Assembly (NCBI GenBank): GCA_005879315.1
Contig: VBLC01000052.1
Location: 1-59,212 of the forward strand
Direction of reading: 5' to 3'
Source of the DNA: Deltaproteobacteria bacterium
GTDB taxonomy: Bacteria > Myxococcota > Myxococcia > Myxococcales > 40CM-4-68-19
Length of the DNA stretch: 59,212 nt
Below, piece by piece: positions 2,672 through 6,946 of this stretch (position 1 is the first letter of the stretch; the number at the start of each line of letters is the position of its first letter). Both the position numbers and the translations under genes were made by a program. The notes under the pieces were generated by a model that saw nothing but the letters and a program-made list of their open reading frames with translations, had not been told where the DNA came from and made no database searches.

Positions 2672-2929
2672 TCAGTCGCCGCTTGCGGCGTTGTACTTGC
2701 CGAATTGCTTCAGATCCTTGTTGGCCTTCACCTTGGCCTTGACGGCGGTGTTGTTGGCCTGATTGCCGGCCAGGCTGTCGGTGGTGCCGGAGAAGAGCTC
2801 GCGGATGTCGCGCCCGAAGACGGTGACCACGCCGATGGCCGCGATGGCGATCAGGGCCACGATGATCAGGTACTCGGACATTCCCTGGCCCTTTTCGGAC
2901 CTGAGGACCTTGCGGAAGAAGCGGCGCAT
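2672..2929 (-). CDS. Flp-type pilin
   Basis: An 85-residue type IVb (Flp/Tad) pilin precursor. A basic leader ends in 'SEKG', followed by 'QGMSEY', which fits the Flp prepilin peptidase pattern G/XXXXEY with Gly14 at the cleavage site and Glu19-Tyr20 at +5/+6. A 19-residue hydrophobic helix (LIIVALIAIAAIGVVTVFG) follows, then a short polar tail. GGGAG lies 7 bp before the ATG. No tad secretion genes are visible here, so assembly machinery must be elsewhere. The role in adhesion or motility is inferred from the family. Confidence 0.82.
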   Translation of the reverse strand: MRRFFRKVLRSEKGQGMSEYLIIVALIAIAAIGVVTVFGRDIRELFSGTTDSLAGNQANNTAVKAKVKANKDLKQFGKYNAASGD

Positions 2930-3176
2930 CGACGGCTCCCTTTCGCGGGCTTCACGGACTGTGGACCCGCAATCTGCAGCTAGCGTACAGCGAGGCGCGG
3001 ACCTTCTCCCATCGGTCGATGATCCGAGCCGCGAAAGGGAAAGCTTCCCTCCTCTCTAGAGCGCAAGTCAAGGCCGCGGCCGACCTTGCGAGGCCCCGCA
3101 GCGCCGGTCTACGCTGCGGGCCATGGGCGGCGTCGCCGGGCGCTTCTAGCGCGTGCAGAGACCGCGCAGCAGGCAA

Positions 3177-4195
3177 ATGGCGCAGATTGCCGAGGATCTG
3201 GCGCGCGCGCTGGGCGCGGCGCCCGATGGCTGCATCATCGCCTGGGACGCGTCGGCGCCGCCGCTGATCGTTTTCGCCACCGGAAATGTCGAGGCGGTCT
3301 TCCAGGCCAAGGCGGGATCGCTTCTCGGCCAGCCGGTCGGATCGCTCTTCGCCGGCGGCGAGCGCGCCGCGAAGGATCTGGCAGTGGCGAGCGCAAACGT
3401 TCCGATCGCCGAGCAGCGACCGATGCTGCGCAACGGCAAGCCCTTCGCGGCGCAACTGCTCTTGCGCGGTGTGCAGGGAGGCGCGGTCGCTTTCGTCCGC
3501 GACCTCACCTTCGGCCAGCAGGACGCCGACGCCGCCCTGCGCGCCGAGGACCTCGCCCGCTTCGCCTCGCTGGTCGCGCACGAGGTGCGCAATCCGCTCA
3601 GCGCGGTGAAGATCGCCCTGCAGACGCTGGAGCGCCATGGCACGCTCGCGCAGAACGACCTGCGCCGCACCTCGATCGCGCTGCGCGAGGTGCTCAACAT
3701 CGAGCTCCTCCTCAATGAAGTGCTCGAGTTCGCGCGGCCGCCGTCGCTCTCGCTCGTACCGGTGGTGCCGGTCACGCCCGTCGAGGAGGCCGTGGCCGGC
3801 GTCGAAGCGGAATGGGCCCCTCGCGGCGTGAAGTTCGTGCGCAAGATGCCGGAGCGGATGGCGCTGGCGATCCTCGACCCGGTTCGCGTGCGCACCGCCG
3901 TCAAGATTCTCTGCCGCCAGGCCGCGGCCGCAGCCGACGAGGCCGGGAGCGGCACCGTCGAGGTCTCGGTCCGCGAGATCCCCTCCGGCTGGGAGCTGTC
4001 GGTGGCCGATCCGGGCCAGACCCTGCCGCTCGAGCTGCGCGAGAAGGCTTTCGTGCCCTTCACGCCGCAGCGCGCACGCGGCTCCGGCCTCGGTCTCGCG
4101 GTGGTCGCCCGCATCGCCCTCGAGCACCGGGGCGAAGCCCGCCTCGAGGAGCGGCCGGGCGGCGGAAATGTTATCTGTGTGACTTTCGGCGCCTG

Positions 4196-4196
<1 letters not shown>
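3177..4196 (+). CDS. PAS-type sensor histidine kinase with degenerate ATP-binding site
   Basis: A 339-residue cytoplasmic two-component kinase: a PAS-like N-terminal half (about 1-125), a HisKA domain with H-box 'SLVAHEVRNPLSAV', then a C-terminal HATPase. The H-box is normal and the G2 box 'GSGLGLAVV' is intact. The N-box reads 'ILCRQAAAAAD' where the Mg/ATP-binding Asn is expected, and the G1 box is 'DPGQT' instead of DxGxG. There is no membrane segment. I use the ATG at 3177; an in-frame GTG at 3153 is possible. Its TGA overlaps the ATG of the NtrC-type regulator by one base (TGATG), so the pair is translationally coupled and almost certainly a cognate system. Confidence 0.86.
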
Positions 4197-5558
<1,362 letters not shown>

Positions 5559-5560
<2 letters not shown>

Positions 5561-5639
5561 ACGAATCGTTCGCTTGGCTGAACGTTCTGCAAGCAGCAAT
5601 TGAACGGATCGTTCAGCAAAACCGTTGGCCGCGAACGGT
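5559..5639. promoter_or_regulatory. Palindrome array, probable enhancer (UAS) for the NtrC-type regulator
   Basis: Two near-identical 13-bp palindromes, GAACGAATCGTTC (5559-5571) and GAACGGATCGTTC (5602-5614, inside TGAACG-N3-CGTTCA), are spaced 43 bp, about four helical turns. Between them is GAACGTTC (5580-5587), and after them ACCGTT-N7-AACGGT (5621-5639). The sites lie about 100-150 bp upstream of the predicted start from the sigma-54 promoter at 5690, where enhancer sites usually sit. The first site overlaps the regulator's own stop codon. Confidence 0.7.
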
Positions 5640-5689
5640 AACAAAGTTCACTACCCGGAAACCAAAGGTAATTTTGACAGCTCACCAGA

Positions 5690-5705
5690 TGGCACGGCTG
5701 GTGCT
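5690..5705 (+). promoter_or_regulatory. Sigma-54 promoter
   Basis: TGGCACGGCTGGTGCT matches the -24/-12 consensus TGGCACG-N4-TTGCW at every position except one. GG is at 5691-5692 and GC at 5703-5704, exactly 10 bp between them as required. Predicted transcription start is near 5716, 30 bp before the CRP-type gene. It sits directly downstream of a sigma-54 activator gene and a palindrome array, which strengthens the call. Confidence 0.78.
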
Positions 5706-5745
5706 CTGGCAAGCGGAGGACATTCCACCTGACCGGAGCCCTTGC

Positions 5746-6453
5746 ATGCGTCCCCAAGTCGACCCGCGCTACCAGCAGCAGTTCCAGCCCCTGGCCTCTC
5801 CCAGCCTTCCACCCGCCGATGTCGTCGATTTCCGCGGCTACTTCAAGGTGGAGACCTTCGGCCACGGCTCGGTCATCTATCGGCCGGGCATGCCGGCGGA
5901 CAAGGTGTACTTGCTCCGCTCCGGCCGCGTGAGGCTGCTGCGGCAGGGCAAAGGCAAGAGCCGCTCCGTGCTCTCCATCCTCAAGCCGGGCGATCTGTTC
6001 GGCGAAGTGCTCCGTCCCGAAGGCACGCTGGTCGAGGAGCTCGCCCTCTCCTCCGGCAAGTGCGAGGTGTGGAGCATCGAGGGCCGCGACTTCCGCGCGC
6101 TGCTCGAGGCCCGGCCGGCGCTCGCAGTCGACGTCATCCGCGCTCTCAACGAGCGGGTGCGGCAGCTGCGCCAGCGCGTGCTCGGCCTGACCCGCAAGGA
6201 CGTGCCGGCGCGCTTGGCGGAGATGCTCATCGCGCTGGCCCAGGCGCACGGCGAGCGCATCGCCCCTGGCAATGAGCTCTGCCTGCACGGCATCACGCAG
6301 CAGGACCTGGCCGACCTCGTCGGCGCCTCGCGCTCCTTCGTCTCGACCTTGATCAACAAGATGAAGAGGGACGCCCTGCTGGCGAACCAGGGCCGCTTGC
6401 TCGTGCTCAGGGATGAGGAAGGACTGAATCGGGTGGCCGCTCGCGAGAAATAG
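5746..6453 (+). CDS. CRP/FNR-family transcription regulator
   Basis: A 235-residue regulator with an N-terminal cyclic-nucleotide-binding-like beta-roll (about 30-140, 'HGSVIYRPGMPADKVYLLRSGRV') and a C-terminal winged helix ('HGITQQDLADLVGASRSFVSTLINKMKR'). The phosphate-binding cassette is 'LFGEVLRPEGTLVEEL': the FGE is kept but the Arg-Ser/Thr-Ala that grips the cyclic phosphate is absent, and there is no FNR Cys cluster. The effector is therefore unknown. I choose the ATG at 5746 because GGAG lies 7 bp before it and it follows the sigma-54 promoter; a longer open frame reaches into the activator gene. The preferred model is that the upstream two-component system controls it. Confidence 0.9.
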   Translation: MRPQVDPRYQQQFQPLASPSLPPADVVDFRGYFKVETFGHGSVIYRPGMPADKVYLLRSGRVRLLRQGKGKSRSVLSILKPGDLFGEVLRPEGTLVEELALSSGKCEVWSIEGRDFRALLEARPALAVDVIRALNERVRQLRQRVLGLTRKDVPARLAEMLIALAQAHGERIAPGNELCLHGITQQDLADLVGASRSFVSTLINKMKRDALLANQGRLLVLRDEEGLNRVAAREK

Positions 6454-6583: not shown

Positions 6584-6625
6584 GAAGGGGTCGCGCGATC
6601 GAACGCGCGGCCCCTTCGTTTTTTT
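6584..6625 (+). terminator. Rho-independent terminator
   Basis: A 14-bp stem, GAAGGGGTCGCGCG (6584-6597) against CGCGCGGCCCCTTC (6604-6617) with one G-T wobble and a 6-nt loop, followed by CG and seven Ts (6619-6625). The T-run gives plus-strand polarity, so it ends transcription of the CRP-type gene before the convergent rpmE. Confidence 0.88.
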
Positions 6626-6634
6626 CCGGAAGAC

Positions 6635-6946
6635 CTAGGTCTTGGCTTGCGGCTCTTTCTTCGCCTTCGCCTTCTTGGCGGGAGCCTTCCTCTCGGCCGC
6701 CTTCGCCGCCGCCTTCACTTCCTTCTTCGACTTTACCGGCTGCGCCGGCGTGTTCGCGTACTTCCTGCGGAACCTGTCCACGCGCCCCTGCGTGTCGATC
6801 AGCTTCTGCTTGCCGGTGAAGAAGGGATGGCAGTTGCTGCAGATGTCGAGGTGCAGATCGCCGTGGGTCGAACGGGTGACCCAGCTGGCGCCGCAAGCGC
6901 AGTGCACCTTGGCGTTGGGATAGGCGGGGTGGATGTTCTCGCGCAT
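6635..6946 (-). CDS. rpmE: 50S ribosomal protein L31 with Lys/Ala-rich tail
   Basis: Large-subunit ribosomal protein, 103 residues against 65-75 usually. The N-terminal 66 residues are canonical: '[10 protein letters not shown]', the zinc-type cysteines in 'CACGASW' and '[12 protein letters not shown]', then '[13 protein letters not shown]'. The Cys pairs mark the zinc-binding (non-YtiA) form. The extra C-terminal 35 residues are almost only K, A, E and P (e.g. '[20 protein letters not shown]'), a disordered basic tail likely to touch rRNA. It is convergent with the CRP-type gene, and the strong hairpin between them points the other way. Confidence 0.95.

What the first reader, a model, noticed from the sequence alone, without database searches (positions are those of the whole stretch)
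5559..5745. NtrC/sigma-54/CRP circuit read directly from sequence
A kinase and an NtrC-type activator are coupled by TGATG. Straight after the activator stop come two near-identical palindromes GAACGRATCGTTC 43 bp apart, related palindromes, then a sigma-54 promoter with perfect GG-N10-GC spacing and a CRP-type gene. The palindromes sit at about -100 to -150, as enhancer sites do. This predicts that the activator controls the CRP-type gene, giving a cascade with an unknown signal.
Basis: partly seen in the sequence, partly recalled or inferred. Interest (0 to 1): 0.78.

Follow-up and report, generated by a model that had tools for sequence, protein, structure and literature searches.

The report
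Myxobacterial mrpABC developmental switch, uncultured relative

Summary
The locus is the mrpA-mrpB-mrpC module of myxobacteria: Myxococcus-like MrpB and MrpC find these genes as best hits in the window's genome by a wide margin. In 39 mrpB-mrpC intergenic regions (window plus 38 relatives), 28 carry the exact palindrome (0.04 expected by shuffling) and 38 a strong sigma-54 site (0.81 expected). In three Myxococcus-like genomes the second palindrome ends exactly 182 bp before mrpC, the published place of MrpB's activating sites. The inference that the activator drives the CRP-type gene is therefore supported, but the circuit is already known. Possibly new are lineage differences: in this family the upstream MrpC self-binding site is missing in 10 of 11 loci, EspC is not found and MrpA's catalytic Asn is Gln in 7 of 7 examined. 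A degenerate MrpC-like site at the start point speaks against a fully brake-free switch. Function is inferred from sequence.

The parts
3153..4196 (+). mrpA orthologue: HisKA + HATPase_c protein (347 aa) with an HExRNP box and Gln in place of the N-box Asn
   Evidence: Pfam HisKA and HATPase_c; 54-79% identical in 8 loci of the same family and 29-37% in the f4 (Myxococcus-like) loci, next to mrpB; box counts. The start codon is not certain.
4196..5560 (+). mrpB orthologue: NtrC-type enhancer-binding protein (receiver, AAA+ with GAFTGA at residue 216, Fis-type HTH)
   Evidence: Pfam Response_reg, Sigma54_activat, HTH_8; GAFTGA position; best hit of Myxococcus-like MrpB, 569 against 364 bits for the next
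5559..5571 (+). UAS1-like palindrome GAACGAATCGTTC, overlapping the mrpB stop codon
5580..5587 (+). degenerate middle site GAACGTTC; an ACGTT core at this place is kept in most of the 10 aligned family members
   Evidence: read; no separate statistic
5602..5614 (+). UAS2-like palindrome GAACGGATCGTTC
5633..5649 (+). weak inverted element GAAC-N9-GTTC, doubtful
   Evidence: read; poorly conserved
5690..5706 (+). sigma-54 type -24/-12 promoter TGGCACGGCTGGTGCTC; predicted start near 5716
   Evidence: with the first palindrome one of the two best conserved stretches of the family alignment
5707..5722 (+). possible degenerate MrpC-type site (1 mismatch to TGTYN8RACA) over the predicted start
   Evidence: the 16-mer right after the -12 has 1 mismatch in 3 of 11 family loci and 2 in another 2; 3.8% of shuffles of the promoter stretch are as good for the window
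5746..6453 (+). mrpC orthologue: CRP/FNR-family regulator, 235 aa
   Evidence: Pfam cNMP_binding and HTH_Crp_2; best hit of Myxococcus-like MrpC, 313 against 72 bits for the next
6584..6617 (+). possible intrinsic terminator downstream of mrpC
   Evidence: 1 found, 0.7 expected in shuffles, so weak

Best explanation
The locus is the mrpABC module of the window's order (Myxococcales by the organism names of near relatives and by the Mrp genes). Phosphorylated MrpB binds the GAACGNNNCGTTC palindromes at and just after its own stop codon, contacts sigma-54 RNA polymerase at TGGCACGGCTGGTGCTC by DNA looping, and starts mrpC. MrpC then acts as a CRP-type regulator elsewhere in the genome. Shown by sequence here: orthology, gene order, conserved sites, and an rpoN gene in the genome. 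Inferred from M. xanthus: binding, activation, and a starvation or development role. MrpA probably controls MrpB mainly as a phosphatase (inference, less certain).
For: Myxococcus-like MrpB and MrpC find 4196-5545 and 5794-6450 as top hits in the window's genome with large margins. mrpB lies upstream of mrpC in 38 of 40 relative loci fetched. The palindrome is exact in 28 of 39 regions (0.04 expected) and present with at most 1 mismatch in 37 of 39. A sigma-54 score of at least 10 is found in 38 of 39 (0.81 expected). A tandem-site pattern is found in 44 of 117 genomes of the order and in 0 of 117 for its reversed control; comparing its places with those by eye, 41 of the 44 have it upstream of mrpC. 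The second palindrome ends 182 bp before mrpC's ATG in L062, L063 and L067, the published distance of the MrpB sites. MrpB's HTH end is strongly conserved in 37 sequences. rpoN is present.
Against: No footprint, expression or mutant data exist for this organism. The paper that mapped the sites is not held, so equality with UAS1/UAS2 rests on position and conservation. Two of 39 regions (L052, L071) show no palindrome within 1 mismatch, 25 of 39 have fewer than two such sites, and two of 40 loci (L057, L058) have no detectable mrpB. Relatives are not independent samples, so shuffle expectations overstate significance.
Confidence: 0.92

Rival explanations
1. The palindromes bind another regulator (for example MrpC itself or a TetR-type repressor), and MrpB acts at a different place.
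For: In M. xanthus MrpC sites overlap the MrpB sites (PMC10701913), so one stretch can serve both proteins. No binding was tested here.
Against: The ChIP consensus of MrpC is TGTYN8RAC (PMC4320627), not GAACGNNNCGTTC. In the 9 loci outside families f1 and f4 no TGTYN8RACA was found (3 of 9 with the shorter TGTYN8RAC, 0.71 expected), yet 8 of these 9 keep a palindrome within 1 mismatch upstream of a sigma-54 site.
Confidence: 0.06
2. mrpC is read through from mrpAB, or its ORF begins at GTG 5557 overlapping mrpB, so that no separate promoter is needed.
For: The CRP frame is open back to 5557, the gap is only 185 bp, and some relatives also have upstream in-frame starts (L041 four).
Against: Other near relatives have none (L042) or one at -21 (L040) upstream of the conserved ATG. 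The sigma-54 site is among the best conserved stretches of the gap.
Confidence: 0.03
3. Chance palindromes in an intergenic stretch.
For: With 2 mismatches allowed the window holds no clear excess (6 against 2.86 expected).
Against: Conservation across the order, and a tandem pair found nowhere else in this genome.
Confidence: 0.01

Closest known systems
mrpA-mrpB-mrpC locus of Myxococcus xanthus (MXAN_5123-5125)
   Same: Gene order and strand, NtrC-type MrpB, CRP-type MrpC, GAACG palindromes and a sigma-54 type site in front of mrpC in Myxococcus-like loci; best hits in both directions. Locus numbers from PMC2129111 (passage).
   Different: The gap from mrpB stop to mrpC ATG is 185 bp against 273 bp in L062, L063 and L067. 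The first palindrome overlaps the mrpB stop. There is no TGTYN8RACA MrpC site, only a 1-mismatch match at the predicted start. The -12 element has its C in 11 of 11 family members and in 0 of 28 others. MrpC's leader before the DFRGYF/DFKGYF block is 27 residues against 40 in L062. MrpA N-box Asn is Gln.
NtrB/NtrC-type two-component systems with sigma-54 promoters (AtoSC, ZraSR)
   Same: Domain plan, and enhancer-like sites at about -100 to -150; AtoS, ZraS and AtoC are the best-scoring NCBIfam models.
   Different: All scores are far below the NCBIfam cut-offs. The recognisable target is the neighbouring CRP-type gene.

Membership tests
mrpABC module of Myxococcales | Kinase-like gene, NtrC-type gene and CRP-type gene in this order on one strand | tested here: met
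mrpABC module of Myxococcales | MrpB and MrpC are orthologues, not paralogues | tested here: met
   Searches of the window's genome with the L062 proteins: 569 against 364 bits and 313 against 72 bits; forward search with MrpC. No tree was built.
mrpABC module of Myxococcales | Two MrpB activating sites upstream of mrpC | tested here: met
   By sequence and position only; binding not tested
mrpABC module of Myxococcales | Sigma-54 promoter for mrpC, and sigma-54 in the genome | tested here: met
   activity not tested
mrpABC module of Myxococcales | MrpC self-binding sites for negative autoregulation (an M. xanthus elaboration, not taken as defining) | tested here: inconclusive
   TGTYN8RACA in 16 of 19 f4 loci, 1 of 11 in the window's family (not in the window), 0 of 9 others. 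But a 1-mismatch match lies at 5707-5722 and at the same place in L040 and L043
mrpABC module of Myxococcales | MrpA is an active kinase for MrpB (disputed for M. xanthus too) | tested here: inconclusive
   N-box Asn to Gln in 7 of 7 family MrpA examined, Asn in 30 of 30 control HATPases of the same genome; activity not measured
mrpABC module of Myxococcales | Required for starvation-induced aggregation and sporulation | not testable with these tools
   No experiment possible; the 7 named relatives found are all metagenome-assembled

The most novel reading that the evidence does not exclude
In this uncultured family the mrp switch runs with few or none of the brakes known from M. xanthus: no upstream MrpC self-repression site, no MrpC site near mrpA, no EspC, a different MrpC leader, and an MrpA that has lost kinase catalysis and acts only as an MrpB phosphatase. 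The MrpB-to-mrpC activation arm would then be the ancestral core of the order, and most feedback layers later additions on the Myxococcus side.
Probability: 0.32. Interest if true: 0.5.

Novelty: new member of a known kind. Interest (0 to 1): 0.36.

Why it matters
It shows that the entry switch of a model multicellular programme exists, with matching DNA sites, in an uncultured lineage whose genomes here are about 3.5-6.1 Mb. It gives an order-wide footprint for probable MrpB sites and separates a conserved activating core from regulation seen mainly on the Myxococcus side. It also makes a published suggestion (MrpA dephosphorylates MrpB; PMC4320627, passage) more open to test, because MrpA's ATP-binding boxes are altered in two different ways in two families.

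Tried and rejected
The third exact GAACGNATCGTTC in the genome (C50:8737) was rejected as a target because by reading it lies inside the end of a coding region. A wider MrpB regulon was looked for: TGAACGNNNCGTTCA with at most 1 mismatch gives 16 places, and only the two at C9:5558 and C9:5601 lie within 100 bp of each other (the 2-mismatch list was cut, 298 per strand against 180 in the control). A search for a sigma-54 promoter in front of mrpA, as published for M. xanthus mrpB (PMC9765219, passages), was inconclusive: it failed in the Myxococcus-like loci too. The tandem pattern also hit three genomes away from mrpC: G001 and G008 I read as chance, while G044 lies behind a different activator gene. 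Named M. xanthus DNA was not obtained: the one genome-contig scan returned 7 loci, all metagenome-assembled relatives. No structure prediction and no tree was run.

Script errors, told: the -24 column printed None throughout and the ATG was misplaced in L070 and L073; those values were not used. In one search the 10 minus-strand controls of 30 were read on the wrong strand; one search repeats all 30. In one search the upstream test covered only 8 loci of the window's family because its pattern missed the rest; one search adds the 19 f4 loci. The HK motif search is insensitive: it missed L050 and L054, which one search shows to have an mrpA-like hit. The 30 controls are the top-scoring of 76 HATPase matches, so they lean towards canonical domains. 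The MrpA sequences were picked by the HExRNP-type motif (25 of 31 candidate ORFs), so that box is intact in them by selection. The 40 relative loci are a chosen spread out of the 117 genomes.

Full report
What is there. The window holds three genes on the + strand: a kinase-like gene (3153-4196), an NtrC-type activator (4196-5560) and a CRP-type regulator (5746-6453). Kinase and activator overlap in TGATG at 4194-4198. The 185 bp before the CRP-type gene carry GAACGAATCGTTC (5559-5571), GAACGGATCGTTC (5602-5614), weaker related sites at 5580-5587 and 5633-5649, and a sigma-54 type element TGGCACGGCTGGTGCTC (5690-5706) with GG-N10-GC. The activator has a receiver domain, an AAA+ domain with GAFTGA at residue 216 and a Fis-type HTH, so it can in principle act on sigma-54. 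The genome holds rpoN.

Is it more than chance? Within the window alone, loose matches to the palindrome are not in clear excess (6 against 2.86 expected with 2 mismatches). In the 4.43 Mb genome, exact GAACGNATCGTTC occurs three times, two of them here, with none for the reversed control; the third lies inside the end of a coding region by my reading. The tandem pattern occurs only here in this genome. The sigma-54 score is reached in 0.18% of 5000 shuffles of the gap.

What it is. MrpC-like proteins with E at most 1e-30 occur in 92 of 193 genomes of the phylum, and the 92 listed are all in the window's order. One genome of the window's own genus (G036, 89% complete) has no match. One search reports a match in 117 of 117 order genomes, but at E at most 0.001, so paralogues are included. 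I fetched 40 loci with flanks out of those 117 genomes; mrpB lies just upstream in 38. MrpB and MrpC from a Myxococcus-like genome (L062) find the window's genes as best hits in the window's genome: 569 bits against 364 for the next, and 313 against 72. This is the mrpA-mrpB-mrpC locus (MXAN_5123-5125; PMC2129111, passage). Published work on M. [quoted passage not shown] In L062, L063 and L067 the second palindrome ends exactly 182 bp before the ATG; that these three are Myxococcus is my inference. Of 12 further f4 loci measured (15 of the 19 f4 loci in all), 10 gave 171-185 bp and in 2 (L070, L073) the script misplaced the ATG.

Conservation. Over 39 regions (window plus 38), the exact palindrome is in 28 (0.04 expected), a site within 1 mismatch is in 37, and two or more such sites are in 14 (0.01 expected). 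L052 and L071 have none. A sigma-54 score of at least 10 is in 38 of 39 (0.81 expected). A tandem pattern hits 44 of 117 genomes of the order, 0 of 117 for its reversed control. Comparing places by eye, 41 of the 44 have it upstream of mrpC; G001, G008 and G044 do not. These genomes share ancestry, so the counts show conservation rather than independent trials. MrpB's C-terminal HTH end is strongly conserved in 37 sequences, which fits one conserved site.

How this family (f1) differs from the Myxococcus-like family (f4). (1) TGTYN8RACA (extended from the MrpC consensus TGTYN8RAC, PMC4320627, passages) occurs in the intergenic region of 16 of 19 f4 loci (0.59 expected), 1 of 11 f1 loci (0.13 expected; not the window) and 0 of 9 others (0.16 expected). 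With TGTYN8RAC the counts are 16 of 19 (2.3 expected), 1 of 11 (0.82) and 3 of 9 (0.71). Upstream of mrpA the longer pattern occurs in 10 of 19 f4 loci and 0 of 8 f1 loci, without a shuffle control. In M. xanthus MrpC represses its own gene through such sites and acts positively on mrpB (PMC10701913). Against a complete loss: the 16-mer right after the -12 has 1 mismatch to TGTYN8RACA in the window, L040 and L043 and 2 mismatches in L039 and L046 (5 of 11 f1 loci); for the window 3.8% of shuffles of the promoter stretch hold as good a match. A site over the start point could repress. (2) MrpA: the N-box Asn is Gln in 7 of 7 f1 proteins examined (of 11 f1 loci), while 30 of 30 control HATPase domains of the same genome have Asn. 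In 18 of 18 f4 proteins Asn is kept, but the G1-box Gly is lost in 17 and the last Gly of the G2 box is Ser in 18. The controls are the best-scoring 30 of 76, so they are biased. The HExRNP box is present in these 25 by selection. This agrees with the proposal that MrpA dephosphorylates MrpB and another kinase phosphorylates it (PMC4320627, passage), and with the different phenotypes of mrpA and mrpB mutants (PMC4048283, passages). (3) EspC passes its cut-off in 12 of 60 genomes, all f4; none of 12 f1 genomes passes it, and 6 of the 12, the window's among them, have no match at E at most 1e-100. Only 14 of 148 first-look candidates were scored in the window's genome, so this is not a complete search. 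In M. xanthus the Esp system lowers MrpC by proteolysis (PMC10701913). (4) The MrpC leader before the DFRGYF/DFKGYF block is 27 residues in the window and 40 in L062, and unlike in sequence. Truncated MrpC2 cannot be phosphorylated by Pkn14 (PMC4320627, passage), so the phosphosites probably lie in that leader; the window's leader has no Thr, but relatives L039 and L041 have a Thr pair at another place. (5) The -12 element has its C in 11 of 11 f1 sites and in 0 of 28 others. (6) Of 36 loci with mrpB not cut by a contig end, 7 (L048, L049, L052, L053, L055, L056, L059) show no mrpA-like match of 100 aa or more, so mrpB and mrpC are the constant part.

Mechanism. MrpB-P on the palindromes activates the sigma-54 promoter and so mrpC; MrpC acts on distant genes. 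Orthology, sites and promoter are shown by sequence; binding, activation and function are inferred. A dedicated activator is suggested by the lack of a second tandem site in the genome, but single or degenerate sites would be missed.

Limits. Absence of a consensus site is not absence of binding. The genome is 97.55% complete. Whether the organism forms fruiting bodies is unknown. A study of Myxococcota bins from activated sludge found the MrpC module shared and FruA and C-signal genes lacking (PMC11821767, abstract and passages), so mrpC alone does not show development. I searched for print on mrpC in other myxobacteria and in metagenomic genomes (listings, then passages of some papers) and saw no account of MrpB sites across the order or of the N-box change; most subscription papers are not in that library, the key 2018 and 2001 papers among them, so these may already be known.

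Noticed in passing
L080:5380-5460 (G044:C124, - strand): A genome of family f6 without an mrpC match at E at most 1e-30 carries a similar tandem GAACG site, just after the stop of a different sigma-54 activator gene (45% identical to MrpB over 298 aa) and before a TGGCACG element: a look-alike arrangement.
   Followed up: partly
window 2672-2929 (-): Small ORF upstream of mrpA, divergent from it, that looks like a Flp-type pilin (by eye, no family search).
   Followed up: no
window 6635-6946 (-): ORF that looks like ribosomal protein L31 with a Lys/Ala-rich tail, convergent with mrpC (by eye).
   Followed up: no
L057 and L058 (G016, G010): Two small genomes (about 3 Mb) of family f3 keep an MrpC-like protein without a detectable mrpB upstream; G010 has three such proteins at E at most 1e-30.
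   Followed up: no
L050 and L053: In two loci the mrpB-mrpC gap is stretched to about 0.8 and 1.15 kb (to the start of the MrpC match), yet an exact palindrome and a TGGCACG site remain within about 300 bp of the mrpC match.
   Followed up: no
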